A DNA stretch of 64,000 nt from Flavimarina sp. Hel_I_48 (GTDB lineage: Bacteria; Bacteroidota; Bacteroidia; Flavobacteriales; Flavobacteriaceae), in assembly GCF_000733945.1 (NCBI RefSeq), contig NZ_JPOL01000002.1, forward strand, positions 3,597,001-3,661,000. Reading direction: 5' to 3'. The notes below the pieces were generated by a model that saw nothing but the letters and a program-made list of their open reading frames with translations, had not been told where the DNA came from and searched no databases. Shown one piece after another: positions 6,803 through 42,083 of this stretch (within the stretch, counting starts at the first letter, position 1; each line of letters begins with the position of its first letter). A program made the translations under genes and the position numbers.

Positions 6803-7504
6803 ATGAAAAGAATATTCAAAACAATAGTACCTTTTATGCTTGCGCTGGCTTTAATGACAGGCTGTGAAGCAGTAAAGAATGCCAATAATCAGCAAAAAGG
6901 GACCGTAATAGGGTCTGCCGGTGGAGCAATACTTGGTGCCGTAATAGGTAACAATGTAGGCGGCGGAGGCAACAGTGAACTTGGCGCGGTCATAGGTGGT
7001 GTTGTAGGTGGTGCGGCCGGTAACATTATTGGTAATAAAATGGACAAGCAGGCACAACGGATTGAAGAAGAAATACCGGGTGCTGAGGTAGAGCGTATTG
7101 ATGATGGTATAGTCGTTAATTTTGATGAAAAAAGTGGCGTTTATTTTGCCACTAACAAATACACTATCAATAATGCTTCGGAAGAGACTTTGAATGGATT
7201 GTCCAAGGTTATGAAAGAATATCCCCAGACAAACATACTTGTTGTGGGTCATACGGATAACACCGGTGATGCCAATTACAATATGACACTTTCTAAGAAC
7301 AGGGCAGAGGCTGTGACGAATTATCTGGAGCAGCAGGGACTCTCTGCGGGACGGTTTACAACCCAATGGTACGGTGAAGAGCAACCTAAATATGACAATA
7401 GTACAGCAGACGGCCGTTCAAAAAATCGTAGGGTAACCTTGGCTATTGTGCCTAATCAAGAAATGAAGGAGGAAGCTAAACAACAAGCTGGTGAAGGTCA
7501 ATAA
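6803..7504 (+). CDS. OmpA-family lipoprotein with glycine-zipper region (YiaD-like)
   Basis: A 233-residue protein with a lipoprotein signal (lipobox LMTGC, Cys21). Residues ~33-85 form a Gly-rich, membrane-associating zipper (GGAILGAVIGNN, then GGVVGGAAGNIIGNKMD). The C-terminal domain (~105-220) is a peptidoglycan-binding OmpA-C domain: VVGHTDNTGDANYN carries the ligand-contacting Asp and SKNRRVTL the Arg. It should tether the outer membrane to peptidoglycan. It is the second gene of a lipoprotein pair and is followed by a strong hairpin terminator. Confidence 0.9.
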   Translation: MKRIFKTIVPFMLALALMTGCEAVKNANNQQKGTVIGSAGGAILGAVIGNNVGGGGNSELGAVIGGVVGGAAGNIIGNKMDKQAQRIEEEIPGAEVERIDDGIVVNFDEKSGVYFATNKYTINNASEETLNGLSKVMKEYPQTNILVVGHTDNTGDANYNMTLSKNRAEAVTNYLEQQGLSAGRFTTQWYGEEQPKYDNSTADGRSKNRRVTLAIVPNQEMKEEAKQQAGEGQ

Positions 7505-7587: not shown

Positions 7588-8223
7588 CTATAAATATTTG
7601 AGCACTTTTCCGGGATTTCCAACAATCACAGCCTTTTCTGGAACGTCACGTATAACTACTGCGCCAACTCCTATAATAGAATTTGCGCCAATACTTTCCA
7701 CACCTGTCATTACAGATGCAGCCATACCAAAATAGGCCCTCAAACCTATGGCAATAGAAGCACCAATATTACATCCTTGAGAAAAAAAGCAACCTTCTGC
7801 GATAACAACGTGATGGGCAATGTTCACGCCCATACTTATCATAGTATAATCTCCTATGCTGGTAAAAGGCATTACATTAGTTGATGGTAAAATATAGACA
7901 GACTTCCCTATGAAAACGTTATCGTGTAAATAAACGCTATCGTGTATAAAAGAAGGGAGGTCATACCCCAATTCTTCATAATACCTTAATAATTCTACCC
8001 TACGTTCATTATTACCCAAAGGTATAAAAATGGCGGTGCCTTTCTGATGCTCCATATATTCGGGTAAAGACTCCACAGAACCTATCACGGGATAGTTGTT
8101 TATTTTTTTATTGAGAAGATCAGGATTACTGTCAAAAAAGCCCTGAACGTCATAAATTTCACTAAGGTAGTTGACATATACTTGACCATATGTACCCGCT
8201 CCTACAATGACACATTTCTTCAT
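7588..8223 (-). CDS. NeuD/PglD-type sugar O/N-acyltransferase (left-handed beta-helix)
   Basis: A 211-residue protein. The N-terminal Rossmann-like half has VIVGAGTYGQVYVNYL and a GFFDSNPDL segment. The C-terminal half has hexapeptide repeats (for example VFIGKSVYILPSTNVMPF, VIAEGCFFSQGCNIGASI) ending in VIRDVPEKAVIVGNPGKVLKYL, as in PglD and NeuD. Such enzymes transfer acetyl groups from acetyl-CoA to a nucleotide sugar, often a 4-amino sugar. It is last in the leftward glycan group, 187 nt after the last ATP-grasp gene. No partner aminotransferase or dehydratase is in the window, so the acceptor is unknown. Confidence 0.85.
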   Translation of the reverse strand: MKKCVIVGAGTYGQVYVNYLSEIYDVQGFFDSNPDLLNKKINNYPVIGSVESLPEYMEHQKGTAIFIPLGNNERRVELLRYYEELGYDLPSFIHDSVYLHDNVFIGKSVYILPSTNVMPFTSIGDYTMISMGVNIAHHVVIAEGCFFSQGCNIGASIAIGLRAYFGMAASVMTGVESIGANSIIGVGAVVIRDVPEKAVIVGNPGKVLKYL

Positions 8224-8410: not shown

Positions 8411-9439
8411 TTACTTTATTGACGTTATAACCGGTTTTAAGCCTTCCTGATGCGTTTTTTCATAAAGGGTTTTATCCCAGTTATCATTACCTTCCAGGAG
8501 ACTGGGGCCGTCTTTTGTTATAAGTACATCCCATCCCACAGTTCTTACTTCAGGCACAACTAAAGCAGCTTGTTCAATCATAGGCATAACAAGTTCCCAA
8601 TGAGGTATTTTAAAACCTATAAGTGTTTTACCGGTAACCGGATGCTGCGTTTCTGTTTTCGATTTCCTTGGATCTTTAAAAAAAACCGGTGCCAGAATAT
8701 TGCCTGTTTCAGGATCTATTGCCATGGCAATGCCACCTTGATGGAAGTTATCTACAAAACTGTCGTTGCTCATACGCACTAACGGCTTAAGGATCTTGAC
8801 AGGGTTCGATTTATCTACAATACTTACTATACGAAGTGTACTCAGGGCATTCGGTGAAATTTCCTGCAGTAGAGGATGTTGCTCTATAAAAGTATCTATA
8901 AGGTCATATTTTTTATTGAGTGCATAACTGTAAAAGGTATTGAGATCTTTACCACCCACTAAGAAGTCGTCCTTATTTGATCTTGTTACCTCAAATTTTT
9001 CCAATCCTGATCCTGCCTGACCGTTACTTTGTTTGGCCATCAGGGCATTTGGATTATTTTCTATCAACCAGATTTTAAAATCTTCAACGTTCTTATCATC
9101 AGTAATGAAGTAGTTGTGCTTGATAAACTTGTCAAATTTCTTATAGAATGCCTTCTTATTTCTAAAGAATGCAATGCTTTCTTTACTGTTGAGCCTACTT
9201 TGAAATTTATACATAAGCAACGTGCTCGCATGGTTGCTCCTTTCCACTTCTGGCCTGTTGTAAAATTCGAGGTAAAAGTAATCTGAAAAAGAAATATTAT
9301 GTTTCCAGAAAGCCTTTAGCATATCAGTGATAACAGCTACTTTCGACTTGTTCATAACCTTGGCAACATAGCTTATAAAAGCTTGAAGCTTACCAAAATC
9401 TGTTACTTTGAATTGATAGAAAAAATAAAGAATTTTCAT
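8411..9439 (-). CDS. ATP-grasp ligase, sugar-transfer-associated family (copy 1, divergent)
   Basis: A 342-residue protein of the ATPgrasp_ST-type family and the most divergent of five tandem copies. The C-terminal catalytic signature GWDVLITKDGPSLLEGN (302-318) carries the metal-binding Glu and Asn. A central FVDNFHQGGIAMAID segment and a FALMAK-like strand (near 132) belong to the ATP-grasp core. The N-terminal 50 residues are unlike those of copies 3-5, and the tail after EGN (DNWDKTLYEKTH) lacks the ADIAYGG stretch. The family is computationally predicted to join amino or carboxyl groups at ATP expense in glycan loci. It begins 54 nt after copy 2. Substrate unknown. Confidence 0.82.
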   Translation of the reverse strand: MKILYFFYQFKVTDFGKLQAFISYVAKVMNKSKVAVITDMLKAFWKHNISFSDYFYLEFYNRPEVERSNHASTLLMYKFQSRLNSKESIAFFRNKKAFYKKFDKFIKHNYFITDDKNVEDFKIWLIENNPNALMAKQSNGQAGSGLEKFEVTRSNKDDFLVGGKDLNTFYSYALNKKYDLIDTFIEQHPLLQEISPNALSTLRIVSIVDKSNPVKILKPLVRMSNDSFVDNFHQGGIAMAIDPETGNILAPVFFKDPRKSKTETQHPVTGKTLIGFKIPHWELVMPMIEQAALVVPEVRTVGWDVLITKDGPSLLEGNDNWDKTLYEKTHQEGLKPVITSIK

Positions 9440-9493
9440 TTAGACGGTTTTCTTATTATAAATGCCATTCATGTTAATACTGTTGAACAGAAG

Positions 9494-10519
9494 TTAGGCA
9501 TCTTCAAAAACTTTTTTCATAAGAGGGTTTTGAAGCAGGCCACCGTGTGCAATATCAACACCAAACCAGGAGTTATTATCATTACCCTCAATAAGGGTTG
9601 GACCATCTTCAGCTATTGCGATATCCCATCCTACGATACGCTCAGGAATAGAATCATTGACCTGATCAATTAATGTACAGGCTTGCTTAAAGTAGGGTAT
9701 TTTAAATCCATCCAACATAAAATCAGTTTCAGGATGTTTTTCGAAAACCAGACCACCAAATTTCATTGCCTGATTTCCCACACCTTTTAAGCGGCCACTA
9801 TCCAGATCTATATTTACATAAAACCCACCAGAACTTGAATTGTCTACCACACTGCCATTGTTGCCAAAACGCATCATTGCAGATAATATATGGTTCTTGT
9901 TCTCACTATCCCTAAAAGTGGTAAAACGTATGCTATTGATACTTTTTGAATAAATTTTATTCACTTCTGTATGTTGGCTGATCACTTCTTGAAATATCGC
10001 ATTTCCGGCCATAAGCTGTAGGCCATGGGAACTGATCATTGCCTTGAGATTTTCAAGATTTAGAAGATAACAATCTTTGCCTCCCTTCTCATCCAGTGGC
10101 TTTACAAAAAGGCCTTTTGAATTTGAATTTTTCAGGTAATCTGATAAAAAAGCTTCCAATTCTATATTAGATTGAATTTCAACCTTATTTGAATTGAAGA
10201 CAAAATTATTCCCGAAATTATATCCATGAAGTTTTGGAGTAGGGAGTTTATTATATTCCAAGTGATAGGCAAAAAATAGCTTATTGCGTAAAATACCGGC
10301 ATAAATAGGCTTATGTAAGACTTTTGAGTTACTGATCTTATCAATTTCTTTACTGCTGAGATAATCGAGATAATTAGTAATCTCTTTACGATATAGGCGC
10401 TTGCCTATATAAACTTTGGGCAGCTCTTTTTTAACCAAAGAAAAACGCCCCATTTCATAGAGCATTTTGAAGAAGCCTTTTTTGTTTTTATCTTTTAAAA
10501 ATATACTTACCCTACTCAT
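9494..10519 (-). CDS. ATP-grasp ligase, sugar-transfer-associated family (copy 2)
   Basis: A 341-residue paralogue with the full set of motifs: the nucleotide-binding strand GLFVKPLDEKGGKDCYLL (136-153), SINSIRFTTFRD, the VVDNSSSGGFYVNID segment (224-238), and GWDIAIAEDGPTLIEGN (297-313) with catalytic Glu/Asn. The tail contains VDIAHGGLLQNPLM, matching copies 4 and 5. Its first codon overlaps the end of copy 3 by 4 nt (ATGA type), so the two are translationally coupled. No signal peptide or membrane segment is seen, so it should be cytoplasmic. The ligated substrate cannot be told from sequence. Confidence 0.85.
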   Translation of the reverse strand: MSRVSIFLKDKNKKGFFKMLYEMGRFSLVKKELPKVYIGKRLYRKEITNYLDYLSSKEIDKISNSKVLHKPIYAGILRNKLFFAYHLEYNKLPTPKLHGYNFGNNFVFNSNKVEIQSNIELEAFLSDYLKNSNSKGLFVKPLDEKGGKDCYLLNLENLKAMISSHGLQLMAGNAIFQEVISQHTEVNKIYSKSINSIRFTTFRDSENKNHILSAMMRFGNNGSVVDNSSSGGFYVNIDLDSGRLKGVGNQAMKFGGLVFEKHPETDFMLDGFKIPYFKQACTLIDQVNDSIPERIVGWDIAIAEDGPTLIEGNDNNSWFGVDIAHGGLLQNPLMKKVFEDA

Positions 10520-11562
10520 TTTGAATATATTTCATTTAGTATTTCTCGTCCTATAGCACTGCTCTTGAAACCGTGCGGGCTTTCTCTCAAACGGGGGGAA
10601 CCATTACCTTCTATTAGAACGGGACCATTTGCTGCTATGGCAACATCCCAGCCTATATAGCGATCTGGCACGAATTTCATACAATCAAAAACCAATTGTT
10701 TTGCTGCTTCAAAATGGGGGATTATAAATCCTTCAAATGGATGTTCACTGTTGGGATGCTCTAAATATATATTGGCCATATTGAGACCACTTGCCCGCTT
10801 AAATCCTTTTTCATAAAGTTGTCCGGTCTCAATATTTACAGGTACGCCTATCCCGCCAGCTGAACTATTATCAATCACACTACCATTTGCACCAAAGCGG
10901 ATATAGCATGTTCTGATATGCTTTTTATTATCACGATCTATATAGGTTTCAAACCTCATTGTATTTAAACTATGCCCATAGATTTTATTGAGTTCGGCAT
11001 GTTGAAGAACTGTTTCCTGATGGATGAACGAGCCATTTAACAGTATAGGTTCTATTTCCTCCAGTTTTGCCTCTAGATCGCCAAGTTTTAATAGGAAACA
11101 ATCCGCACCTCCATGTGCTCCATGATCCTTAAGAAATAGACTGTCTTTTTGAGATTCCTGCATTACCTTTCTAAAAAATTGAATAAGATCAGCTGTAGTT
11201 TCCAATCGTTCGAATTTGCTTTTATGGAAAAATAGTTTTTCAACATTATAGCTGGGCATTTCGGGTATGGATAGACCACATTTCTCAAAATACAAGGCAG
11301 AGGCCAGTTTGTTTTTTAAAAGTGTGGTATACTCAAGTCTGTGCAGTTTTGGTGAAGAGTTTATGGCAATGATCTCATCAAGCGTAAGAAAGTCTTTATA
11401 GTTGCCCGAAGATTCCAGGTACATGAATGTTTTTACGTAATACGTAGGTATTCTTTTATTTTGAATACTCAAGGTGATTACCTCTTTGATAATTTTGCTC
11501 CAACTTTTTTTTGGATTATTATCTTCTCGAATTTGATTGAACCTTGCCAGAAAGAACTTCAT
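10516..11562 (-). CDS. ATP-grasp ligase, sugar-transfer-associated family (copy 3)
   Basis: A 348-residue paralogue. Motifs: SLFLKDHGAHGGADCFLL (141-158), LNTMRFETYID, VIDNSSAGGIGVPVNI (229-244), GWDVAIAANGPVLIEGN (304-320). It is closest to copy 4 across the whole N-terminal half (for example KNKLASALYFEKCGLSIP against KNKLSSALYFEECGLPIP). Its tail differs: GSPRLRESPHGFK replaces the Ala-Asp-Ile-Ala segment of copies 2, 4 and 5, which suggests a different acceptor or lid. It starts 44 nt after copy 4 and overlaps copy 2 by 4 nt. Confidence 0.85.
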   Translation of the reverse strand: MKFFLARFNQIREDNNPKKSWSKIIKEVITLSIQNKRIPTYYVKTFMYLESSGNYKDFLTLDEIIAINSSPKLHRLEYTTLLKNKLASALYFEKCGLSIPEMPSYNVEKLFFHKSKFERLETTADLIQFFRKVMQESQKDSLFLKDHGAHGGADCFLLKLGDLEAKLEEIEPILLNGSFIHQETVLQHAELNKIYGHSLNTMRFETYIDRDNKKHIRTCYIRFGANGSVIDNSSAGGIGVPVNIETGQLYEKGFKRASGLNMANIYLEHPNSEHPFEGFIIPHFEAAKQLVFDCMKFVPDRYIGWDVAIAANGPVLIEGNGSPRLRESPHGFKSSAIGREILNEIYSK

Positions 11563-11606
11563 GGGGCGTGTATAAATTTGTTATCAGAATAGAATAAGGT
11601 TTCAGC

Positions 11607-12710
11607 TTAATCAATATTCTTGAAATACATGATTTTGTCTCTATGAATACCAGTTTTATAAGCTTCATCTAATATTTCTGAATAGAGCGGATGCTTTTTG
11701 TAGCCACCATATGCGATATCAGCCACCATAATGTGGGGCGCGGCATTACCTTCAACGATTATAGGCCCGTCTGATGAGATTGCAATATCCCAACCTATAT
11801 AGCGTTCTGGGACAAATTCCATAGCTTTTAAAACAAGATCACAAGCTTCCTTGTATAAGGGTATTTCTGCATTTTCCAGCTCAAACTGGGTGCTGGGATG
11901 ATGCGTAAAAGTTTTTGCACCACTATTGGCCGCAAGTTTTTGATATCCCTTGCCTTGAAGTCTTCCTGTTTCCTGATTAATGGAAACAAAAAATCCGCCG
12001 GCTCCAGCATTATCTACCACATTGTCACCTACTCCAAAACGGATATAACTGGAAACTATATGTGACTTTTTTTCTTTGTCAATATAGGTTTCAAACCGTA
12101 TCGTGTTGAGGCAACTGGAGTTGATTGCGTTGAGACTATCATGCTGCTTTATCGTTTCCTGATAAATGAATGACCTTTTTAAGAGTCTAGGACCAATTTT
12201 CTCAAGCTGATCCCGAAGACCTTCTTTTTTGATTAGATAACATCCCGCTCCACCACTTTCTGCAAACTCTTTTACAAAAAGACTCTCATGGTTTTCATCT
12301 TCAAAAACGCCTGACAAAAGGGAATAAAGATCATCTAGAGTATGAATTTCGATTGTTTTTTCCTTTGTAAAGAAAACCTGTTCTACGTTGTAAAGTGGCA
12401 TTTTTGGAATAGGAAGTCCACATTCTTCAAAATAAAGAGCACTTGATAATTTATTTTTTAAAAGCGTATGATAGCCTATAGAATGTAGATTTTTTGAGAA
12501 ACGTACCTGTACTTCCTCTTCAAGTGTCAAATAATTAGCATAATCACCAGAGTCTGATCGGTACAAGAATTTGGAGGCGTAATGAAAAGGGAATTTTTTT
12601 TCTGAAAGAATACTTTTAGTTAATTCCCGACTAATTTTTAAGGCACTTTTCTTCTTGCTATCATCTTTTATGATCATACGCAACCTACCGGTGTAATTGT
12701 TTAAACTCAT
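11607..12710 (-). CDS. ATP-grasp ligase, sugar-transfer-associated family (copy 4)
   Basis: The longest copy, at 367 residues. Motifs: SLFVKEFAESGGAGCYLI (143-160), LNTIRFETYID (201-211), VVDNAGAGGFFVSI (231-244), GWDIAISSDGPIIVEGN (306-322), then the tail MVADIAYGGYKKHPL and a 20-residue C-terminal extension not seen in the other copies. The N-terminus MSLNNYTGRLRMIIKDDSKK aligns with copy 5 started at 13774, supporting both starts. It is 17 nt after copy 5. An ATP-dependent amide or peptide-like ligation in the cytoplasm is expected from the family; the substrate is unknown. Confidence 0.85.
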   Translation of the reverse strand: MSLNNYTGRLRMIIKDDSKKKSALKISRELTKSILSEKKFPFHYASKFLYRSDSGDYANYLTLEEEVQVRFSKNLHSIGYHTLLKNKLSSALYFEECGLPIPKMPLYNVEQVFFTKEKTIEIHTLDDLYSLLSGVFEDENHESLFVKEFAESGGAGCYLIKKEGLRDQLEKIGPRLLKRSFIYQETIKQHDSLNAINSSCLNTIRFETYIDKEKKSHIVSSYIRFGVGDNVVDNAGAGGFFVSINQETGRLQGKGYQKLAANSGAKTFTHHPSTQFELENAEIPLYKEACDLVLKAMEFVPERYIGWDIAISSDGPIIVEGNAAPHIMVADIAYGGYKKHPLYSEILDEAYKTGIHRDKIMYFKNID

Positions 12711-12727
12711 TGTAGAAGTTTTGGGTT

Positions 12728-13774
12728 TTATTTCTGGCTGTGAATGTCATTCATGATTCTCCGCATTACAGGATTTTTCAAAAGTCCACCGTAGGCAATA
12801 TCAGCAGTTTGCATACCGGGATTTTCATTGCCTTCTATAAGTAGCGGACCAGTGGGTGTAATGGCAATATCCCAACCTGTAAACCCATCCGGGATATAGC
12901 TTAATGCATCAAAAACCATTGCACAAGCTTCCTGAAAATAAGGAATTTTAAAATCTTTGAAGATAAAGTTGGTATCGGGATGTTGAAAGTATAAATTTCC
13001 CCCGGCTTTCATAGACTGGTGTGCATCCTCTTTAAGCATTCCTTTCTCCATGTCAACTGCTACATACATACCACCGCCACTGGCATTGTCTACAATATTT
13101 CCACCTCTACCAAAACGCATAAATGCTGAGATTATATGAGATTTACCTTCTTGGTCTATATGTGAAATGAAACGTATCGTATTTATGCTATGTGGATAAA
13201 TTTCACTTATTGCAGGATGCTGTTTTGCGATTTCCTGATGTACAAAGCTACGAAGATAAAAATTTTGGTTCCTGATGGATTCCTCGAGGTTTTGTAGTGT
13301 TAATAAATAACAACCTTTTCCCCCATGGGCAGCAATTTCTTTTATAAAAACACCTTTTTCGCCTGTTTTTTCCAGGACATTTCTATAGAATTCTATTACC
13401 TTTTCATCATTATCTAAATGACGAATCTGATTGTTAAATACAAAAGATCTGTTTAAATTATAACTGATTAATCTGGGGACAGTAAGCGCGTTGTTCTCAC
13501 AGTAAAGAGCAAAACTTAATTTGTTTTTTAGTAAAGATGAAGTTTCAAAATTGTGTAAAAATTTTGCGCTTTTTAACAGATAGAATTCTTTTATGCTAAG
13601 ATAATCTTTGTAGTTTTTTCTATCAGCTCTATATAAATATTTCCCGCCGTAATAGAAGGCAAGTTCCTTTTTTGCCAGACTAAGCACTAAAACCTCTTTT
13701 GCTATTTTAAAGAGGCTTTTTTTCTTGCTTTTATCCTTCAGTATTAGTTTTACCTGGTTGAAATTAAGTGTCAT
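12728..13774 (-). CDS. ATP-grasp ligase, sugar-transfer-associated family (copy 5, first in operon)
   Basis: Predicted 348-residue first gene of the ATP-grasp array. From this start, GVFIKEIAAHGGKGCYLL lies near residue 141, INTIRFISHID near 197, NIVDNASGGGMYVAVD near 226 and GWDIAITPTGPLLIEGN at 300-316, followed by QTADIAYGGLLKNPVM. The frame is open to a TTG at 13813, but that codon falls inside the -7 promoter element, whereas the ATG at 13774 gives MTLNFNQVKLILKDKSKKK, aligned with copy 4. It is separated by 242 nt from the sugar transferase upstream. Confidence 0.86.
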   Translation of the reverse strand: MTLNFNQVKLILKDKSKKKSLFKIAKEVLVLSLAKKELAFYYGGKYLYRADRKNYKDYLSIKEFYLLKSAKFLHNFETSSLLKNKLSFALYCENNALTVPRLISYNLNRSFVFNNQIRHLDNDEKVIEFYRNVLEKTGEKGVFIKEIAAHGGKGCYLLTLQNLEESIRNQNFYLRSFVHQEIAKQHPAISEIYPHSINTIRFISHIDQEGKSHIISAFMRFGRGGNIVDNASGGGMYVAVDMEKGMLKEDAHQSMKAGGNLYFQHPDTNFIFKDFKIPYFQEACAMVFDALSYIPDGFTGWDIAITPTGPLLIEGNENPGMQTADIAYGGLLKNPVMRRIMNDIHSQK

Positions 13775-14016: not shown

Positions 14017-14631
14017 TTAAGAATTCTTCGCTGTTCCCATAAATTCTTCCATAGTTACTTCTTCCGAAGCGGAGATACCTTCTGATTTAAATACTTTAAT
14101 AACTGTTTTGAATAATATCTGTAAATCTAGCATAAAGCCTATATTATTCACGTACCAGACATCGTATTTAAATTTTTCCTCCCAGGAGATGGTATTCCTC
14201 CCATTGATCTGTGCCCAACCCGTAATACCTGGACGCACATCGTGCCTATGTTGTTGTTGTTCATTGTAACGCGTTAAATAGGCGACACGTAAAGGTCGTG
14301 GTCCCACGATACTCATCTGCCCTTTTATAACATTGAGTAGCTGGGGGATCTCATCAAGCGAGGATTTGCGTACAAAAGCACCAAGTTTTGTAATACGCAA
14401 ATGGTCAGGAAGTAAGTTACCATTGGCATCCTTTTTATCGTTCATTGATTTGAACTTGATAATATTAAATACCTTACCGTTCAATCCCGGTCTAGGTTGA
14501 TAGAAGAAAGGTTTCCCTTCATTACTTCTATAAAGAAGTACACATACAACAAGGAAAATAGGGGATAAGAGAATAAAGGCAATGCTTGCGCACAATATAT
14601 CTAAAGCCGGCTTTATTAATTTTACGTACAT
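14017..14631 (-). CDS. Bacterial sugar transferase (PglC/WcaJ catalytic domain type)
   Basis: A 204-residue membrane enzyme that moves a sugar-1-phosphate from a nucleotide sugar onto undecaprenyl phosphate, starting a lipid-linked glycan. One N-terminal hydrophobic segment (~9-32, ending VCVLLYRS) is followed by FFYQPRPGLNGKVFNIIKFK, SLDEIPQLLNVIKGQMSIVG, PRPLR and the PGITGWAQINGRN signature. It is the short monotopic form lacking the extra membrane domain of WcaJ. It lies 40 nt downstream of the GT4 gene. As the only such gene in the window, it may prime the main exopolysaccharide cluster 13 kb away. Confidence 0.92.
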   Translation of the reverse strand: MYVKLIKPALDILCASIAFILLSPIFLVVCVLLYRSNEGKPFFYQPRPGLNGKVFNIIKFKSMNDKKDANGNLLPDHLRITKLGAFVRKSSLDEIPQLLNVIKGQMSIVGPRPLRVAYLTRYNEQQQHRHDVRPGITGWAQINGRNTISWEEKFKYDVWYVNNIGFMLDLQILFKTVIKVFKSEGISASEEVTMEEFMGTAKNS

Positions 14632-14671: not shown

Positions 14672-15832
14672 TTACGCATCCTCTTTTTCCAGATTTTTGT
14701 ATTCCTGTAAAATCGCTTCCCAAACCTTTTTTTGGTCAAAAAGCCTTACAATACGTTCTCTGGCAACGTTTTTCATTTGTGTGGTTATCTCAGGGTTCTC
14801 TATCATTTTTTCAATAGCAGCTTCAATGGCAGAAGCATCTTTAACAGGAATGATCGTACCATTGATACCTTCTTCAATAATCTCATTGCAGCCGTTGATA
14901 TCACTTACTATGCTAGCTAGGCTCATCGCACCGGCCTGCAGCACAACATTGGGAAAACCTTCGCGGTAACTAGGGAAAACCAGCACATCGCTCACTGCAA
15001 AAAAGGGTCTCACATCATCCTGCCAACCTAAAGAAATAATAGCTTTGTTAGTGGCTATTTCTTCTTCGGCTTCTGGACTGATGGGGTCAAGGTCCTTTTC
15101 ATAGGGCCCTACCATGAGCAATTTAAGGTGATCATACTTTTTGCTCAATTTATGAAAAGCTTCCATAAGTTCATTGATCCCTTTGTCACGCACAATCCTA
15201 CCCACAAAAACCAAAATGAGATCGTTTGGTTTAATGCCCAATTTATTTTTTAATTGCTCCTTTTCTTCCGTCGTACTTACATCTGGGCTGAAAATGCTGG
15301 TGTTTATACCATTTGAACTTCCATTCGCCAGTACCTTAAGTTTTTCAGGTTTAGTGAATTTGTGTTCCAATATTATGTCTTCAAGGCCTTTTGAGTTGGG
15401 GTACACTTTTGTGGCACAGGCATAGGTAAGGCGTTCCACTTGATTTAGGATAGTGCGTTTAGTACCTGTCGCTTCAACAAGTGGTAATCCTGCAACCGTA
15501 TGTAACCTGTGCTTTACGCCAGCCATTTTTGCTGCCATCATACCCACAATACCCGCTTTTGGGGTATGGGTATGTACAATAAATGGTTTTTCACGTTTTA
15601 ATACTTTGTATAACTTGAAAAGGGAGGAGAGGTCCTGGACAGGTGTTATTACGCGGGTCATTTCCAGATCAATGGTGTCTATCCCTTCATTATCGCGTAC
15701 TTTTTGCATATTTTCCTTAGCCCCGGCAATACCAATAACGTGATAGAACTGATTCATAAATCGCAATTGTCCCTTTAACAAGATCCATAGGGATCCTGAA
15801 ACGGTAGTAATTCTAATCAATTTCTTTTTCAT
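14672..15832 (-). CDS. Glycosyltransferase family 4 (PglA/WbpT-like)
   Basis: A 386-residue GT-B fold enzyme. The N-terminal domain has HTHTPKAGIVGMMAAKMAG and AGLPLVEATGTKR. The C-terminal donor-binding domain has VFVGRIVRDKGINELMEAF and FPSYREGFPNVVLQAGAM, where the usual EX7E motif has Gln in the second position, as seen in some GT4s of short N-glycan-like loci. It likely adds a sugar to the lipid-linked product of the neighbouring PglC-type transferase. It heads the leftward group; the 366 nt upstream hold no convincing gene. Confidence 0.9.
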   Translation of the reverse strand: MKKKLIRITTVSGSLWILLKGQLRFMNQFYHVIGIAGAKENMQKVRDNEGIDTIDLEMTRVITPVQDLSSLFKLYKVLKREKPFIVHTHTPKAGIVGMMAAKMAGVKHRLHTVAGLPLVEATGTKRTILNQVERLTYACATKVYPNSKGLEDIILEHKFTKPEKLKVLANGSSNGINTSIFSPDVSTTEEKEQLKNKLGIKPNDLILVFVGRIVRDKGINELMEAFHKLSKKYDHLKLLMVGPYEKDLDPISPEAEEEIATNKAIISLGWQDDVRPFFAVSDVLVFPSYREGFPNVVLQAGAMSLASIVSDINGCNEIIEEGINGTIIPVKDASAIEAAIEKMIENPEITTQMKNVARERIVRLFDQKKVWEAILQEYKNLEKEDA

Positions 15833-16198: not shown

Positions 16199-17320
16199 AT
16201 GGAATCACAAGAAGTTCATATAGTGGGTGGCGGTCTCTCCGGCCTCATAACGGCGATGCACCTTTTAAAAAATGGTTTTGAGGTGACCGTATATGAGCGT
16301 AACCCATACCCCAAGCATAAGGTTTGCGGGGAGTATATTTCAAATGAAGTCCTTCCCTATCTTAAAAGTCTTGGTATTGACCCACAGCGTCATGGTGCGG
16401 TAACACTAAAAAAATTGCAGTGTAGTAGCGCAAAGGGCAGGGGGGTGGTCGTTGATCTTCCTCTGGGAGGTTTTGGGCTTAGCCGTTATACTCTAGATCA
16501 TATTATTTACAAAGAGGTACTTCTGGCCGGCGGAAAAGTTTTAAAGGAACAGGTGGAAAATATTCTGTTTTATGACCATACGTTTGAGATCAAAACATAT
16601 TCTGGCAAAACATTTAAAGCGGATATTGTTGTGGGAGCTTACGGGAAACGTGCCAACCTTGATATCACGCTTTCGCGGAAATTTATTCAGCAGAAATCAC
16701 CCTGGATGGCCGTAAAATCGCATTATAAGGCTGATTTTCAGTCAGATTTGGTGGGTTTGCATAACTTTGATGGTGGTTATTGCGGTATTTCAAATGTGGA
16801 ACACGGCCTCGTCAATGTATGCTATCTTGCACAGTTGAATTCCTTTCAGCAGTATAAAGACCTTACTATTTACCAGGAGCAAGTACTTCGGAAAAATAAA
16901 TATTTAAATGATTTTTTCAAAAATGCGATTTCCGTTTTTGAAAAACCATTAACCATAAGTCAGATTTCCTTTGATCGCAAAGAACGGGTTGCAAATCACA
17001 TTTTGATGTGTGGCGATAGCGCAAGTTTAATTCATCCGCTTTGTGGTAATGGTATGGCCATGGCAATCATGGGGGCACGCATTCTAAGTACCTGCATCAT
17101 AAAAAACCGACAAAATAGAGGTACCCGCCAGGAGCTAGAAAATGCATATACCCAGCAGTGGGAAAACGAATTTAGAGCACGGTTGCAATGGGGCAGAGGG
17201 CTACAGCGCATCCTGATAAAGCCAATGGCGGCAAATCTGGGTATAGCCACCATGCAACATACGCCCCGGCTTTTTAAAAAGCTAATAGAACAAACCCACG
17301 GAAAAATGGAAAGCGTATGA
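16199..17320 (+). CDS. FAD-dependent oxidoreductase (UbiH / geranylgeranyl-reductase-like)
   Basis: A 373-residue flavoprotein, first gene of the type III PKS operon. VHIVGGGLSGLITAMHLL (7-24) is the FAD-binding GxGxxG fold, followed by VYERN and a KHKVCGEYIS segment typical of this subfamily. MCGDSASLIHPLCGNGMAMA is the second FAD motif (GD). Such enzymes hydroxylate or reduce hydrophobic rings or polyenes. Its stop overlaps the methyltransferase start by 4 nt, indicating coupled translation. It probably tailors the polyketide, but whether it oxidises or reduces is not decidable here. Confidence 0.87.
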   Translation: MESQEVHIVGGGLSGLITAMHLLKNGFEVTVYERNPYPKHKVCGEYISNEVLPYLKSLGIDPQRHGAVTLKKLQCSSAKGRGVVVDLPLGGFGLSRYTLDHIIYKEVLLAGGKVLKEQVENILFYDHTFEIKTYSGKTFKADIVVGAYGKRANLDITLSRKFIQQKSPWMAVKSHYKADFQSDLVGLHNFDGGYCGISNVEHGLVNVCYLAQLNSFQQYKDLTIYQEQVLRKNKYLNDFFKNAISVFEKPLTISQISFDRKERVANHILMCGDSASLIHPLCGNGMAMAIMGARILSTCIIKNRQNRGTRQELENAYTQQWENEFRARLQWGRGLQRILIKPMAANLGIATMQHTPRLFKKLIEQTHGKMESV

Positions 17321-18018
17321 AAACCCGTATTCTAAAACCAGAACTGATGGATGATCCACAGTTGGAAGAGTCAAAGCTTCATGCGGCTTTACAGGATGTG
17401 ACCCTGGTCAATAAATGGTTGGGTGGTCAGCAAATTACCTTAGACGGAATAGACTATTTTTTCAAGAAATACCCTCAAAAATCCTATACGATTGCTGATT
17501 TGGGCTGCGGAGATGGCGAAATACTTCGGAAAATGGCCGTTTTTTGCCAAAAAAAAGGTATAAATGCGAGTTTTGTAGGTTTTGACCTTAATGCGAAAAG
17601 TATCGTCCTTGCCCAAAAGCGGTCTATAGAGTTTCCTGAGATCAGTTTTAGGCAACAGGACATCCTAAAACTTGGCGAGAAAGAGGAAGTTTTTGATATC
17701 ATGACAAGTACCTTAACCATGCACCATTTTACAGATGAAGAAATCCTGAATTTCCTTCGCTTTTTTGAACAACGTTCCACTTTGGGATGGGTAATCAATG
17801 ATTTACAGCGAAGCCGGACGGCTGCGGTGCTTTTCCGCGCATTTAGCGGTGTATTTATGAAAACGAAAATTGCACGTTACGATGGCCTTGTTTCCATAGG
17901 GCGCGCATTCACAAAAAAAGAATTGATAATTTTCGCCACTAAGCTCGGTTTAGAGCATTATAAACTGAAATGGCGATGGGCTTTTAGATATTTATGGATA
18001 GTAGACAGCAAAGCGTAA
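17317..18018 (+). CDS. Class I SAM-dependent methyltransferase
   Basis: A 233-residue enzyme with motif I IADLGCGDGEILRKM (59-73), a following acidic strand FVGFDLNAKSIVLAQ and TSTLTMHHFTDEEILNFL as motif IV/V. It overlaps the FAD gene by 4 nt and the PKS by 25 nt, so it belongs to the same transcript. In comparable loci such an enzyme O- or C-methylates the polyketide ring. There is no membrane segment, unlike the isoprenylcysteine-type methyltransferases paired with Bacillus type III PKSs. Confidence 0.88.
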   Translation: MKTRILKPELMDDPQLEESKLHAALQDVTLVNKWLGGQQITLDGIDYFFKKYPQKSYTIADLGCGDGEILRKMAVFCQKKGINASFVGFDLNAKSIVLAQKRSIEFPEISFRQQDILKLGEKEEVFDIMTSTLTMHHFTDEEILNFLRFFEQRSTLGWVINDLQRSRTAAVLFRAFSGVFMKTKIARYDGLVSIGRAFTKKELIIFATKLGLEHYKLKWRWAFRYLWIVDSKA

Positions 18019-19067
18019 AAATTGTAGGGGTAACTAAAGAACTACCTCAATTTTCCCGGGAAACACCAGATATAATGCCGTTATTGGACGGTTGGTTGGT
18101 AAATAAAGACGAGCGTTTCAAACGAAAAGTAAAAAAGATTTTTGGCAATGCAGCGGTAGATAAGCGCTATAGTATCATGTCACCAGAGGAGGTTTTTTCT
18201 GCTACTTCTTTTGAGGAAAAGAATGACATTTATATACGAGAAGTCATAAAACTAGGGGAAAAGGTACTTGACAAAGCCCTAAAAAAAGTACAATGGAACG
18301 CTACGGATCTTGACTATATCATCACGGTGAGCTGCACTGGCATAATGATCCCTTCACTTGACGCTTATCTTATCAACAGCTTACAACTGCGTCAGGATGT
18401 GGTACGCTTGCCGGTAACTGAAATGGGTTGTGCAGCCGGAATTTCTGCAATGGTATATGCTAATGAGTTTTTAAAGGCCAATCCGGGTAAACGCGCTGCG
18501 ATCATTGCTGTTGAAAGCCCCACCGCAACGTTTCAGCTTGATGATTATTCCATGGCAAATGTGGTGAGTGCGGCTATCTTTGGAGATGGTGCTGCCTGTG
18601 CCTTACTTTCTTCTCACGAGGAAGATCACGGCCCACAGATTGTTGATACTGGGATGTATCATTTTTATGATGCGGAGCAGATGATGGGATTCAGTCTTAC
18701 GAATATGGGACTTAAAATGATACTTGATCCTGCTGTTCCCGATACTATTGCTGAACATTTCCCTATGATTATCCATCCGTTTTTAGAGAAAAACGCACTA
18801 AAAATTGAAGATATTGACCATTTAATTTTTCATCCTGGCGGAAAAAAAATTGTGCAAACGGTGGAAGCGCTTTTCGGTGAAATGGGTAAAAATATAGATA
18901 ACACTAAAGAGGTTCTTCGCCTGTACGGCAATATGAGCAGCGTTACCGTTTTGTACGTTTTAGAACGTTTTATGGAACGCGGCATGCAGCCGGGCGACCA
19001 CGGACTTATGTTGAGTTTTGGCCCTGGCTTTTCCGCGCAGCGGGTTTTACTGAAATCCCCTGATTGA
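17994..19067 (+). CDS. Type III polyketide synthase (chalcone synthase superfamily)
   Basis: A 357-residue thiolase-fold enzyme with the complete catalytic triad: Cys146 in EMGCAAGISAM, His280 in IFHPGGKKIV and Asn313 in YGNMSSVTVL. The GFGPG-like loop SFGPGFSAQR (341-350) is intact. It would extend a CoA or acyl starter with malonyl-CoA units and cyclise it to a pyrone, resorcinol or phloroglucinol. It overlaps the methyltransferase by 25 nt and is 55 nt from the FabI-like reductase. Similar FAD/methyltransferase/PKS groups occur in other flavobacteria; I know of no established product for them. Confidence 0.93.
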   Translation: MDSRQQSVKIVGVTKELPQFSRETPDIMPLLDGWLVNKDERFKRKVKKIFGNAAVDKRYSIMSPEEVFSATSFEEKNDIYIREVIKLGEKVLDKALKKVQWNATDLDYIITVSCTGIMIPSLDAYLINSLQLRQDVVRLPVTEMGCAAGISAMVYANEFLKANPGKRAAIIAVESPTATFQLDDYSMANVVSAAIFGDGAACALLSSHEEDHGPQIVDTGMYHFYDAEQMMGFSLTNMGLKMILDPAVPDTIAEHFPMIIHPFLEKNALKIEDIDHLIFHPGGKKIVQTVEALFGEMGKNIDNTKEVLRLYGNMSSVTVLYVLERFMERGMQPGDHGLMLSFGPGFSAQRVLLKSPD

Positions 19068-19122
19068 AAAAAGACGATTATAGGCTGTTTCTTATTACTT
19101 ATCATTTTATGGATTACTATTT

Positions 19123-19929
19123 ATGAGCACCAGAAATTTCAATACAGAAGAAAAAAATAATTACTGGGCACTTATTCTGGGAGGAAGTTCAGGATTGGGT
19201 CTTGCCTCTGCAAAAAAATTAGCTGCTCACGGTATGCATATTTGCATAGTACATAGAACACGGCGCAGCAAATTGGCCGTCTTTGAAGCAGAAAAACAAA
19301 GTATACGTTCTTATGGAAATCAGGTGACTGATTTTAACTGTGACGCCCTTGATCCTGTAGCGCGCGAGAAAATACTTGATTTTTTAAAAAAGGAAAAAGC
19401 ACGGGTTTATGTTTTATTGCACAGTATAGCAAAGGGAAATCTTAAACCAATATATTCAGAGGAAAAGGTTGAAAATACGCTTAATGGGAAGGATTTTTCA
19501 TTAACGGTAGATGCAATGGCGATAAGTCTATATGACTGGAGCAATGTTTTGAGGAATGCCGGGCTATTTTCTGATAAAGCCCGCATACTTTCATTTACCA
19601 GTATGGGCAGTCGCAAACCGCTTCCCAACTATGCCGCGGTTTCCACTGCAAAAGCTGCCCTGGAGGCGATCACGCGAAGTCTCGCTTACGAGTTGGCACC
19701 ACTGGGCATAACCGCAAACTGCATACAGGCCGGCGTAACAGATACCGAAAGTTTGCGTCTAATTCCCGGTAACGAACGTTTAAAGCAGGAAGCCCTAAAA
19801 TTAAATCCAAATAACCGCCTTACCACGCCAGAAGATGTTGCCGCGGTAGTGTATTTATTATCCCTGCCAGAGGCGCGGTGGATCAATGGGGCTATCATCC
19901 CGGTAGATGGTGGGGAGCACTTATTGTAG
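19123..19929 (+). CDS. FabI-like SDR (enoyl-ACP reductase family)
   Basis: A 268-residue short-chain dehydrogenase. The cofactor loop is GGSSGLG (20-26), and the catalytic residues are Tyr170 and Lys177 (NYAAVSTAK). This is the Tyr-x6-Lys spacing of FabI/FabL enoyl reductases rather than the Tyr-x3-Lys of typical SDRs. The C-terminal EAITRSLAYELAPLGITANC and WINGAIIPVDGGEHLL segments are standard. Placement after the PKS suggests a dedicated role in starter supply or in reducing a double bond. It could instead be a FabI paralogue with a general role. Confidence 0.85.
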   Translation: MSTRNFNTEEKNNYWALILGGSSGLGLASAKKLAAHGMHICIVHRTRRSKLAVFEAEKQSIRSYGNQVTDFNCDALDPVAREKILDFLKKEKARVYVLLHSIAKGNLKPIYSEEKVENTLNGKDFSLTVDAMAISLYDWSNVLRNAGLFSDKARILSFTSMGSRKPLPNYAAVSTAKAALEAITRSLAYELAPLGITANCIQAGVTDTESLRLIPGNERLKQEALKLNPNNRLTTPEDVAAVVYLLSLPEARWINGAIIPVDGGEHLL

Positions 19930-23650: not shown

Positions 23651-26600
23651 TTAGTTTTTAATAAACTTGATTACTTTCTTAGAAGATGCATCTTTTACAA
23701 TCTCAACAAAATAAATACCCGTCTGTAGAGAACTCGTTTCAAGAGTATATGAGGTATCAAAGGCGTTATATTTTTTAGAAATCAATGTTGCCCCGTTTAT
23801 ATTTTTGACAGCTATCTCTAGGGAACGCTCCGTATCACCAATTCCTGTAAGGGTAATATTATCTTTAGTGGGATTTGGATATACTGTAATGGATTCCCCA
23901 AAACGATCTCCATTAGAAAGATTTGCATCTTCTTCAATAGTACTTAGCGTTGTTTCTGGCTCTATGCGCAAGAAGCGTGTATTATCCCTTAGATCTGATT
24001 CGCTATAACCACCATTTGCTACTATTAATTTATCATCAAAAATTCCCGCTACAGGAGCCAATAGTCGTTCTGGGAGTTCGCAACGCTGCGTCCATTGATC
24101 AATAGCTGGATCGTATTCTGTAATATCATCGAAAAAGAAAATACCGCGACGACCTCCTATAATTATAATTTTACCATTATGGACAAGGGTACACGGTTCA
24201 AAATGAGAACGGTCTGCGAATAAATTTCGTTTCCGTGTCCAGGTATCAGTTGCAGGATCATAAACATGAAGGTAGCGCAAGTACTGTTTTTCATAATCGT
24301 GGCCGTATTGACCACCAATTGCATAAATAAGACCATTAACAGTAGCCGCGCTCAAGTGGTTTCGTCCATAAGGTAATGGAGCAGCAGGAATCCAACCTGC
24401 GGCAAGATTTTCGGGGTCTAGTACGTAGTGTTCATCAACATCTGTGGTACGATCTGGTAAAAGGCCACCAAAGAAATGGATTTTACCATTTGCATATGCT
24501 GCAGCACCTGATCCACGCGGTGCGGGTAGGGATGGTCCTGCCCTCCAGGAATCCGTTGAGGTACTGTAGATTTGAACCTTAGCTGTTGCGACACCTGGAT
24601 TGTTACCAATAAAACCGCCTATAAGCCAAACATCGTCATTAACTTGGGCTTTCCCCATATGAGTTGCGGGAAATGGCATAGGAGCACCTGTAGTCCAAGT
24701 ATTATTTTTCACATCGTAAATTTCAGTCACACCCGTAATAATAAAATTATCGAGAAAACCTGCAAACGAGTATAATTTATCTCCTACAGTAGCAGATTGT
24801 GCTTCAAGCTTTTTTAGTTTACTGGGAGCTAATTCTGTCCATGCACAAGGATCTTGTCCCTCTTCACCAAGTTCACCATTGCCGTATAACTGAATACCGC
24901 AAAGTTGGGGTCTGTTTACAGTGGCGCCAAAATTTAAATTGAGTTCGCCATCGCTTACATTGACAGTATATGTTCGCGTGAGGGCAGTTCCCGTGCCCAC
25001 TTCTTTGGTAATATCAAAACCTTCAATTGCACTCTCGTTCTCTAGTTTGTAATTGAAAACACGTTTTCCTATTCCGCCTGGCCCACTTTTAGGAGCACCA
25101 AACCACAATTCAGCGAAATGCAATTTGACCTGATAGGTACCATTAGTTACTGGAAATGCATAGCTAAAATTGCCCTGATCATTGTTTGTGCTACGTTCAG
25201 ATTTATAAAGTGCCTGTATATTCGTGTTTTTGATTTCGTTAAAGGTAGTAGTGCTGGTTTTGGAAGAGCCCGTAGTGTATGCATCCTTCTGAAATACAGT
25301 ACCGTTTAGGGTTAAGCTAGGACCCCCTACATTAAAGCTAGCCATTAGTGGAAATTCATCTTCCTTACGCTCATTTTCTTTGAAAACTTCGATCGCCGCA
25401 ATTTTTGGACGATCTTTAGAGGCACTAAAGTCAATGTTTAGAATCCCGTCTTTAACAGATGTACTATATGTTTTTATTGAAGCTGTCATAGTACCCAACT
25501 CCTTGATCATATCTAAATCTACCAGTTTAGCTTTATTTTCAACATTTACACTGAAGATGCGTTTGTTTACGCCTCCTGAGCCACCACCCGGAACACCCCA
25601 GTAGATTTCGGCAAAATGGAGCGCAACACGATATTCTCCATTTTTTACCGGTATGGCGTAGCCAAAACTTCCCTTATCAACACCTGCTGAACGCTCAGAT
25701 TTGTAAAGTTCGTCTTCCGTAGTATTTTTGATATCTTCAATTTGTTGATTTTCAAATACTGAGGTTTTCCCCGTAAAGTAAGTATCGGCAAGAAAATTTT
25801 TTCCATTTACAACGAGGGCAGAGCTTCCGGCATTTATACGAGTTACCGCTGTATCATCAACCGGATCTACTTTGATGATCTCGATGGCAGAAATTTTAGG
25901 TTCGTCTTTTGTGGATGTGAGATCTATGTTTAACTTACCATCTCTAACATTTACGCTATAAGATTTGATTAGAGCGGTTTCTGAACCCACTTCTCTTATA
26001 ATATCCAGGTCTGACAACCTCTTTTGATTTTCAATGGAAATATTGATGAGCCGTTTTCCTTTGCCTCCTGAGCCACCTCCCGTTGCGCCCCAGTAAATTT
26101 CGGCAAAATGGCATTTAACTTTATAGTTGCCATTTTCAACAGGGATAGTATAGGAAAATCCACCACTGCCGGTACCTGTAGATCGCTCTGACCTGTAGAT
26201 TGCATCTTTCTCAGTATCATGTATGGCAGGAATACCATAATTTGTATACTTTCTTCCACCATTAAAATAGCTATCTGCACTAAAGCTCATACCATCAATT
26301 TCGATTTGCGGTCCGCCCGTATTGATACGTATTGCTTCTGGTTCATTAGCCTCTGGTTCTTCAATAATTTCCAGTGCAGAAAGTTTAGGTTGGTCTTTAG
26401 AGCCGATAAAATCTATATTGAGGATACCATCTCGTACAGTGACCAAATATTCTTTTTGCAGGGCATTCATAGTTCCCACTTCTTTAATGATATCAAGACT
26501 GTTGAGAACTTTTTGGTTTTCTAAGGTTGCGCTAAAAACACGTTTGCCATTGCCACCAGAACCGCCGTTTGTGGATCCCCAATAAATTTCAGCGAAATGA

Positions 26601-26971
26601 AGTTTAACCTTAAATGTTCCATTTGGAACGGGTATGGCATAATTAAAGGTATTTTTATTGGCAATCGTACTGCGTTCAGTCAAATAAAGGTCATCGCGAG
26701 TGGTATTCCCTATATCCTTGATATGGTCATTTTTAAAAGTTTTACCATCACCCTTGTAGTAATTATCTTTGATGAAATGTTCATTCCCATACCGTATCTC
26801 ATCACCACCACTATTAATCCGTAACACAAAAGGATCATCCTTAATCTCTGAAGTAGTATCAGATGTGTCATTTGTAGAAGGGTTATTGGATATGTTAGAG
26901 AAAGACGTCACTGAAGTGAAGGAGGTGACCGTAATGGTAAATAAAAGAATGTAATTTGAAAAAAATCTCAT
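23651..26971 (-). CDS. Secreted malectin(x4)-kelch protein with T9SS type A sorting domain
   Basis: An 1106-residue exported protein. Residues 1-23 form a signal peptide, then a Ser/Thr/Asp-rich linker. Four malectin-like carbohydrate-binding repeats follow at about 48-203, 212-366, 376-530 and 543-697, each with a HFAEIYWG-like core (HFAELWFG in the fourth). A kelch beta-propeller occupies ~710-1000 (VWLIGGFIGNN, IHFFGGLLPDR, IYAIGGQYGH, IIIIGGRRG). The C-terminus (~1028-1106, YPNPTKDNITL to KVIKFIKN) is a type A T9SS sorting domain, so the protein should be surface-attached or released. It probably binds glycan. It is monocistronic. Confidence 0.9.
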   Translation of the reverse strand: MRFFSNYILLFTITVTSFTSVTSFSNISNNPSTNDTSDTTSEIKDDPFVLRINSGGDEIRYGNEHFIKDNYYKGDGKTFKNDHIKDIGNTTRDDLYLTERSTIANKNTFNYAIPVPNGTFKVKLHFAEIYWGSTNGGSGGNGKRVFSATLENQKVLNSLDIIKEVGTMNALQKEYLVTVRDGILNIDFIGSKDQPKLSALEIIEEPEANEPEAIRINTGGPQIEIDGMSFSADSYFNGGRKYTNYGIPAIHDTEKDAIYRSERSTGTGSGGFSYTIPVENGNYKVKCHFAEIYWGATGGGSGGKGKRLINISIENQKRLSDLDIIREVGSETALIKSYSVNVRDGKLNIDLTSTKDEPKISAIEIIKVDPVDDTAVTRINAGSSALVVNGKNFLADTYFTGKTSVFENQQIEDIKNTTEDELYKSERSAGVDKGSFGYAIPVKNGEYRVALHFAEIYWGVPGGGSGGVNKRIFSVNVENKAKLVDLDMIKELGTMTASIKTYSTSVKDGILNIDFSASKDRPKIAAIEVFKENERKEDEFPLMASFNVGGPSLTLNGTVFQKDAYTTGSSKTSTTTFNEIKNTNIQALYKSERSTNNDQGNFSYAFPVTNGTYQVKLHFAELWFGAPKSGPGGIGKRVFNYKLENESAIEGFDITKEVGTGTALTRTYTVNVSDGELNLNFGATVNRPQLCGIQLYGNGELGEEGQDPCAWTELAPSKLKKLEAQSATVGDKLYSFAGFLDNFIITGVTEIYDVKNNTWTTGAPMPFPATHMGKAQVNDDVWLIGGFIGNNPGVATAKVQIYSTSTDSWRAGPSLPAPRGSGAAAYANGKIHFFGGLLPDRTTDVDEHYVLDPENLAAGWIPAAPLPYGRNHLSAATVNGLIYAIGGQYGHDYEKQYLRYLHVYDPATDTWTRKRNLFADRSHFEPCTLVHNGKIIIIGGRRGIFFFDDITEYDPAIDQWTQRCELPERLLAPVAGIFDDKLIVANGGYSESDLRDNTRFLRIEPETTLSTIEEDANLSNGDRFGESITVYPNPTKDNITLTGIGDTERSLEIAVKNINGATLISKKYNAFDTSYTLETSSLQTGIYFVEIVKDASSKKVIKFIKN

Positions 26972-42064: not shown

Positions 42065-42083
42065 GACTTTAAAAAGATTAATC

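What the first reader, a model, noticed from the sequence alone, without database searches (positions are those of the whole stretch)
8411..13774. Five consecutive ATP-grasp ligase paralogues in a glycan locus
Seen: five adjacent genes on one strand, 341-367 residues each, all with GWD-x-GP-x-EGN and VDN-x-GG segments, spaced 54, -4, 44 and 17 nt, between a PglC-type sugar transferase and a PglD/NeuD acyltransferase. Family knowledge: this ATP-grasp type is predicted from comparative genomics to form amide or peptide-like bonds in polysaccharide loci; I know of no settled biochemistry. Inference: five ligases in series could add an ordered set of amino acids or other amines to a lipid-linked sugar, a non-ribosomal peptide-like decoration of the glycan.
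Basis: partly seen in the sequence, partly recalled or inferred. Interest (0 to 1): 0.82.

Follow-up and report, generated by a model that had tools for sequence, protein, structure and literature searches.

The report
Five-ligase array in a sugar operon
A marine bacterium carries a compact eight-gene sugar operon with five different, apparently intact enzymes of a kind expected to join acids to amines, which may hang a small peptide-like side group on a surface sugar; their activity is not yet known.

Summary
Five adjacent minus-strand genes (8411-13774) are all PF14397 (ATPgrasp_ST; 132-156 bits, cut-off 31.4) and the only such genes found in the genome. With a GT4, a short PglC-type transferase and a PglD/NeuD-type acyltransferase they form an eight-gene island seen in 2 of 13 genomes of the genus; in the other 11 the flanking genes lie about 95-171 nt apart.

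The copies are not recent duplicates: W1-W4 are 34-44% identical, W5 23-25%. Each has an orthologue in the same order in a Leeuwenhoekiella MAG, and five orthologue groups separate in a 50-row tree. All keep the expected ATP and metal residues. Models of W1 and W5 resemble ArgX/LysX, RimK and Ddl most. Some W5 relatives are fused to PglC or PglD; sister operons hold one or two ligases with ANL or FemAB-like enzymes.

Best reading: five non-redundant carboxylate-amine ligases decorating a lipid- or nucleotide-linked sugar. Ordered addition of several residues is plausible but unproven. Arrays of four or five also occur, apparently independently, in another Bacteroidota family: a new variant of a known kind.

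The parts
14672..15832 (-). GT4 glycosyltransferase, first gene of the operon
   Evidence: PF00534 117.8 bits; 84% identical to the MAG copy; a GT like it (348-512 bits) within six genes of the ligase in 15 of 77 related loci
14017..14631 (-). Short PglC-type phosphoglycosyl transferase (204 aa)
   Evidence: PF02397 207.4 bits; the only short one of the 5 PF02397 frames found in the genome at E <= 1e-20, the others being 449-466 aa
12728..13774 (-). Ligase W1, ATPgrasp_ST
11607..12710 (-). Ligase W2, ATPgrasp_ST
   Evidence: PF14397 138.4 bits; orthologue group g2
10516..11562 (-). Ligase W3, ATPgrasp_ST, fastest-changing copy (49% to its MAG orthologue)
   Evidence: PF14397 132.1 bits; identity; orthologue group g3
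9494..10519 (-). Ligase W4, ATPgrasp_ST; in one clade with the single ligases of Aquimarina-type loci
   Evidence: PF14397 143.4 bits; trees
8411..9439 (-). Ligase W5, ATPgrasp_ST, deeply divergent type; a few relatives are fused to PglC or PglD
   Evidence: PF14397 153.5 bits; fusions P0055, P0057, P0083; AlphaFold2 pLDDT 95.0
7588..8223 (-). PglD/NeuD-type hexapeptide acyltransferase, last gene of the operon
   Evidence: PglD_N 40.7 bits, Hexapep 41.9 bits; TIGR03570 159.9 bits, cut-off 160.8
6803..7504 (+). OmpA-like gene, left flank of the island (name from sequence by eye)
   Evidence: present in 13 of 13 genus genomes
16199..17320 (+). FAD-dependent oxidoreductase gene, right flank of the island
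   Evidence: FAD_binding_3 38.7 bits; present in 13 of 13 genus genomes; match ends 95-171 nt from those of the OmpA-like gene in the 11 genomes without the island

Best explanation
An eight-gene glycan-decoration island. Inferred mechanism: the PglC-type enzyme loads a sugar phosphate on undecaprenyl phosphate, the GT4 adds a second sugar, and PglD N-acylates an amino sugar. Five intact, non-redundant ATP-grasp carboxylate-amine ligases then build amide bonds on this unit, each via an acyl phosphate made from ATP. The W5 type probably acts closest to the sugar and W1-W4 add or extend with different substrates. Shown here: family, fold (W1, W5), conserved residues, separate orthology, island structure, fusions. 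Inferred: amide chemistry, the acceptor, the number of residues, the order.
For: All five are PF14397. 29 positions, including K85, K145, R201, R220, D229, N230, D302, E314, N316 (W1 numbering), are invariant in the 29 proteins of the five orthologue groups compared. D302, E314 and N316 line up with D, E and N of RimK in a weak profile hit. Models of W1 and W5 match ArgX, RimK and LysX best, Ddl next. Each copy falls in its own orthologue group (4 label changes, the minimum; ultrafast bootstrap 90-100%). Gene order is conserved in L063. Three of 120 listed W5 homologues are fused: P0055 and P0057 to PglC, P0083 to PglD. A Flavivirga sister operon (L072) has GT4, W5-type, W4-like, PglC, then a PglD-FemAB protein and five PF13480 (FemAB/GNAT-like) genes. 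In L141 ligases are interspersed with three PGA_cap capsule genes.
Against: No measured activity for this family was found. The operon has no sugar-nucleotide, flippase or polymerase gene of its own. Solved relatives found by fold are only 7-19% identical, with Foldseek TM-scores under 0.5 to the query in the listed rows, and biotin carboxylases and other ATP-grasp enzymes that make no amide also appear among the rows. None of the 120 listed W1 homologues carries a partner domain. W3 changes fast. The loop differences between groups are compatible with different substrates but do not prove them. Our operon lacks the ANL-like enzyme that accompanies the ligase in 23 of 77 related loci.
Confidence: 0.55

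Rival explanations
1. The ligases act in parallel, not in series: each amidates a different sugar (for example GalNAcA carboxyls or 4-amino groups) of one repeating unit, or the same site with alternative acids, giving a mixed decoration.
For: TviB-like (566.4 bits, cut-off 592) and TviC-like (393.1 bits, cut-off 760) genes that could supply UDP-GalNAcA lie 11.5 kb away with Wzx-, EpsG- and GT-like genes. An ATP-grasp domain of another family, Cj1438C, amidates GlcA in Campylobacter (passages). Residues after N316 differ by orthologue group.
Against: Fusions join W5-type ligases to PglC and PglD, which are expected to handle the first sugar. The operon has one GT only.
Confidence: 0.25
2. The operon makes a soluble or lipid-linked small glycopeptide (a secondary metabolite) rather than decorating a surface polysaccharide.
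For: Island without export genes, seen in 2 of 13 genus genomes. Linked peptide ligases often build peptide-derived secondary metabolites (statement in PMC4431377, passage, which names O-antigen as well).
Against: PglC-type transferase in the operon and PglC fusions. A PF01943 Wzx-like gene stands in the same window. Some related loci hold PGA_cap, EpsG, PF01943 or pyruvyl transferase genes.
Confidence: 0.12
3. Dosage or redundancy: tandem duplicates with the same function, or some copies acting only as scaffold subunits.
For: Tandem arrays arise repeatedly. W3 evolves fastest.
Against: 34-44% and 23-25% identity between copies and five separate orthologue groups with the catalytic residues kept.
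Confidence: 0.08

Closest known systems
Pfam PF14397 ATPgrasp_ST (sugar-transfer associated ATP-grasp)
   Same: All five proteins belong by score; the sugar-transfer context is the family's name-giving feature.
   Different: Usually one copy per place: of 65 genomes with a match among 397 of the taxonomic family, only this one has a run of five and three have runs of two (counted by eye). Five separate lineages in one operon were not found described in the searches done.
TupA-like ATP-grasp amidoligase Cj1438C, Campylobacter jejuni capsule
   Same: ATP-grasp enzyme in a polysaccharide locus, reported to form an amide with the C6-carboxylate of glucuronic acid (PMC11800379, passages).
   Different: The Pfam scan lists only PF14397 for the five at E <= 0.001. 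There it is one domain fused to a glycosyltransferase, not an array. The two were not compared directly.
RimK and LysX/ArgX amino-acid ligases
   Same: Best solved fold matches; metal residues align with RimK in a weak hit.
   Different: 14-19% identity in the RimK, LysX and ArgX rows; protein or carrier-protein substrates (recalled); no PF08443 hit at E <= 0.001 for the five.
TIGR02291 alpha-L-glutamate ligase-like proteins (RloC may be one)
   Same: Weak profile similarity, best for W5 at 47.2 bits. RloC is an uncharacterized ATP-grasp gene in an operon with stress and biofilm phenotypes (PMC12239564, passages); that it belongs to TIGR02291 is my inference.
   Different: Far below the 314.2-bit cut-off; the rlo operon has a protease and an inactive transglutaminase instead of sugar genes.

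Membership tests
PF14397 ATPgrasp_ST | Profile score over the curated cut-off of 31.4 bits | tested here: met
   132.1-155.6 bits for all five
PF14397 ATPgrasp_ST | ATP-grasp fold | tested here: met
   Models of W1 and W5; Foldseek and VIA matches to RimK, ArgX, Ddl. W2-W4 were not modelled.
PF14397 ATPgrasp_ST | ATP and metal residues kept | tested here: met
   29 invariant positions in 29 proteins; D, E and N aligned with RimK, whole-sequence E 0.033, the stretch alone not significant; residue roles recalled
PF14397 ATPgrasp_ST | Genomic link to sugar transfer | tested here: met
   GT4, PglC-type and PglD-type genes in the operon; fusions of W5 relatives
Carboxylate-amine (amide) ligases | ATP-dependent amide bond formation | not testable with these tools
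   needs an assay
TupA-like ATP-grasp (PF14305, accession recalled) | Profile match | tested here: inconclusive
   only PF14397 listed at E <= 0.001 for all five; that the TupA model is in the scanned library was not checked
TIGR02291 alpha-L-glutamate ligase-like | Score over 314.2 bits | tested here: not met
   at most 47.2 bits; no hit for W1
RimK (PF08443) | Profile match | tested here: not met
   no hit at E <= 0.001 for the five; the model is in the library, as it hits another protein
NeuD/PglD acetyltransferase (TIGR03570), gene 7588-8223 | Score over 160.8 bits | tested here: inconclusive
   159.9 bits, 0.9 under the cut-off; PglD_N and Hexapep over theirs
PglC-type transferase, gene 14017-14631 | PF02397 domain in a short protein; sugar specificity | tested here: inconclusive
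   domain 207.4 bits, 204 aa; no NCBIfam model over its cut-off, so the sugar is open

The most novel reading that the evidence does not exclude
The array is a template-free assembly line of stand-alone ATP-grasp ligases that puts a defined hetero-oligoamide (up to five residues) on a PglC-primed, PglD-acylated sugar, with gene set reflecting residue set. In the Flavivirga sister operon most of the same job is done by tandem FemAB-like enzymes, so the two enzyme classes are interchangeable modules for glycan-borne peptides in Bacteroidota.
Probability: 0.3. Interest if true: 0.8.

Novelty: new variant of a known kind. Interest (0 to 1): 0.56.

Why it matters
PF14397 is a named family for which no measured activity turned up here. 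A self-contained island with five divergent, apparently intact members and only three partner genes is a compact system in which to measure that chemistry. If the ligases work in series, bacteria can write short peptide-like codes on surface sugars without ribosomes or large synthetases.

Tried and rejected
Recent tandem duplication: rejected, since copies are 23-44% identical and each groups with its own orthologue. Decay of some copies: rejected on residues; W3 is the fastest but intact. A dN/dS test failed: dS came out saturated (over 2) or not computable for all eight gene pairs, so I claim nothing from it. Uniqueness of a five-run: rejected, since G528 holds five in 5.7 kb, and G679, G588 and G774 four each (one run is cut by a contig start, and the G774 run is broken by a RimK-like gene). 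The G528 five form one clade of their own, on a long branch. Sequence search of the PDB with the five-row profile found nothing at E <= 0.01. FemAB-like reading of L072 genes: one of the five PF13480 genes also has a FemAB_like hit, the fused protein has a FemAB hit, and one gene tried against PDB sequences found nothing, so this is profile evidence only. Terminal repeats of the island: the longest direct match is 10 nt, within the shuffled range (maximum 12). Promoter scan 39 sites against 31.5 (sd 6.2) in shuffles, terminators 6 against 6.0: uninformative. Paper searches for sugar-transfer associated plus ATP-grasp, PF14397, FemAB plus ATP-grasp plus polysaccharide, and ATP-grasp plus O-antigen plus amide linkage gave 0 papers each; the library lacks most subscription journals. 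A search for Leeuwenhoekiella exopolysaccharide gave 5 listings, none opened. The Iyer 2009 amidoligase paper and Riegert 2022 are not held; I saw them only as references.

Weak points of the survey: searches scored at most six candidates per genome, so longer runs could be undercounted, and one search did not list the other island carrier G012 among its matches. At the laxer E <= 0.001 the family rings in 7 of 14 control genomes (over the cut-off in 2), so counts use E <= 1e-15, where it rings in 0 of 14. The 80 loci are the best of 574 confirmed and lean to close relatives; of L064-L142 (79 loci) 77 kept a ligase call in the context count. Runs were counted by eye. For the 50-row tree I chose 27 proteins of the five groups and 23 others, leaving out further orthologues; one ungrouped row (P0010) lies inside group 5. 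That proteins share a contig was inferred from equal contig length. Empty-site gaps are distances between match ends.
Full report
Observation. Every one scores far over the PF14397 cut-off and a search of the genome finds no other member at E <= 0.001. Identity is 34-44% among W1-W4 and 23-25% between W5 and the rest.

Island. Upstream are a PF02397 PglC-type transferase and a GT4; downstream is a PglD/NeuD-type protein. The GT4 (E <= 1e-60) and PglD (E <= 1e-20) occur in 2 of 13 genomes of the genus, ours included. The flanking OmpA-like and FAD oxidoreductase genes occur in 13 of 13. In the 11 without the operon their match ends are 95-171 nt apart; here the genes are 8694 nt apart. The eight genes therefore entered, or were lost, as a unit. 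The second carrier is contig DRGP01000170.1, a Leeuwenhoekiella MAG (L063), contained in the fetched G012 contig, with the same eight genes in the same order. Orthologue identity is 62, 58, 49, 70 and 56% for W1-W5 against 84, 79 and 77% for GT4, PglC and PglD, so the ligases change faster than their partners. That MAG has a further, solitary ligase on another contig, next to an ANL-like enzyme (L086).

Separate lineages. In a 50-row tree five orthologue groups (27 proteins) need 4 changes, the least possible, with ultrafast bootstrap 90, 98, 100, 100 and 100% for groups 1 to 5; group 1 is the weakest (SH-aLRT 58). Two more contig lengths (6263 and 6136 nt) each carry one member of all five groups, and a 12399-nt one carries five more distant members; sharing a contig is inferred from equal length. 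W5-type proteins form a deep separate clade. W4 falls in one clade with the single ligases of Aquimarina-type loci.

Catalysis. 29 positions are invariant in 29 proteins of the five groups (10, 7, 2, 4 and 6 proteins). They include K85, K145, R201, R220, D229, N230, G234, G235, D302, E314 and N316. In a weak profile hit (whole-sequence E 0.033, the stretch alone not significant) D302, E314 and N316 fall on D, E and N of RimK; that these bind metal is recalled. Ten positions are fixed inside groups 1, 2, 4 and 5 but show three or more residues between them, and four of the ten (319, 320, 321, 331) follow N316; group 3, with two proteins, was left out of that count. In Ddl this loop touches the substrate (recalled), so different substrates are a fair inference.

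Functional links. Among the 120 listed W5 homologues (of 327 at E <= 1e-10) two (P0055, P0057) are fused to a PglC-type domain and one (P0083) to a PglD-type one, by precomputed Pfam and by eye; of the 120 listed W1 homologues (of 276) none shows a PglC, PglD or other sugar-enzyme domain. In 15 of 77 related loci a GT like ours (348-512 bits) lies within six genes of the ligase, and in 12 of these 15 a PglC-like gene too. A Flavivirga locus (L072) has GT4, W5-type, W4-like, PglC, then PglD fused to FemAB and five PF13480 (FemAB/GNAT-like) genes. In 23 of 77 loci an enzyme of one family lies within two genes of the ligase; it is ANL-like by weak NCBIfam hits under the cut-offs and by a PDB match to phenylacetate-CoA ligase, E 1.2e-8. 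Our operon lacks it, though a distant relative sits at 38272-39645. In a Bacteroidales locus (L141) ligases are interspersed with three PGA_cap genes. In contrast, many of the 77 loci show none of GT, PglC or PglD like ours within six genes, so the family also works in other settings.

Copy number elsewhere. Of 397 genomes of the taxonomic family, 65 have PF14397 at E <= 1e-15; one (ours) has a run of five and three have runs of two. Of 395 genomes drawn from the phylum, 30 have it; besides ours G528 has a run of five, and G679, G588 and G774 have four, the last broken by a RimK-like gene, with shorter runs in others. The five of G528 form one clade and three of the four in G774 another, pointing to independent expansion, although those branches are long.

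Sugar supply. No nucleotide-sugar genes lie in the operon. Elsewhere the genome has a 649-aa PF02719 protein beside a DegT aminotransferase (L168), a possible source of UDP-4-amino sugar. Other PglD-like proteins exist: one on C1 (PglD_N 37.6 bits), one at L169:9369 by a 48-bit match to ours, and a 23.5-bit PglD_N match inside the PF02719 frame, so our PglD need not be the only one serving that pathway. In the same window, 27342-47924, are TviC-like (393.1 bits, cut-off 760) and TviB-like (566.4, cut-off 592) genes, Wzx- and EpsG/Wzy-like genes and several GTs. Acceptors could be a 4-amino group or a GalNAcA carboxyl; the data do not decide.

Literature. Linked peptide ligases in one operon are said to catalyse successive ligations in several pathways, including O-antigen and teichuronopeptide (statement in PMC4431377, passage). 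Cj1438C is reported as an amide ligase on GlcA (PMC11800379, passages). So the general idea is old; the five-lineage island and its sister operons are what is new here, as far as the searches reach.

Verdict. Confirmed observation; interpretation partly supported; new variant of a known kind.

Noticed in passing
window 27342-47924: A Wzx/Wzy-type polysaccharide locus with TviC/TviB-like genes (possible UDP-GalNAcA supply), EpsG-like polymerase, pyruvyl-transferase-like gene and several glycosyltransferases (the GT2 genes after 44676 by eye).
   Followed up: partly
window 38272-39645 (-): ANL/PaaK-like protein without a Pfam hit, distantly related to the one paired with single ATPgrasp_ST ligases in other Flavobacteriaceae.
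   Followed up: partly
window 39862-44027 (-): Two adjacent similar proteins of about 645 aa; the first has right-handed beta-helix hits, the second looks alike by eye.
   Followed up: no
window 16199-19929 (+): FAD oxidoreductase, methyltransferase-like gene, DpgA-like polyketide synthase (191 bits, cut-off 425) and a short-chain-dehydrogenase-like gene in a row, also in L063 (the second and fourth named by eye).
   Followed up: no
L072:11679-19506: PglD fused to FemAB followed by five PF13480 (FemAB/GNAT-like) genes in tandem, in an operon with GT4, two ATPgrasp_ST ligases and PglC (Flavivirga sp.).
   Followed up: partly
L141:9650-18721: ATPgrasp_ST genes interspersed with three PGA_cap capsule genes in a Bacteroidales MAG.
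   Followed up: no
L144:5684-11400: Four ATPgrasp_ST ligases with a RimK-like ATP-grasp gene (342 aa) in between, downstream of an EpsG-like gene.
   Followed up: no
L152:7200-9962: PglD-type gene next to an ATPgrasp_ST pair, one W5-type and one not, in another genus of the family.
   Followed up: no
window 23651-26971 (-): 1106-aa protein with repeated segments of similar sequence and a likely secretion-type C-terminal end, seen by eye only.
   Followed up: no
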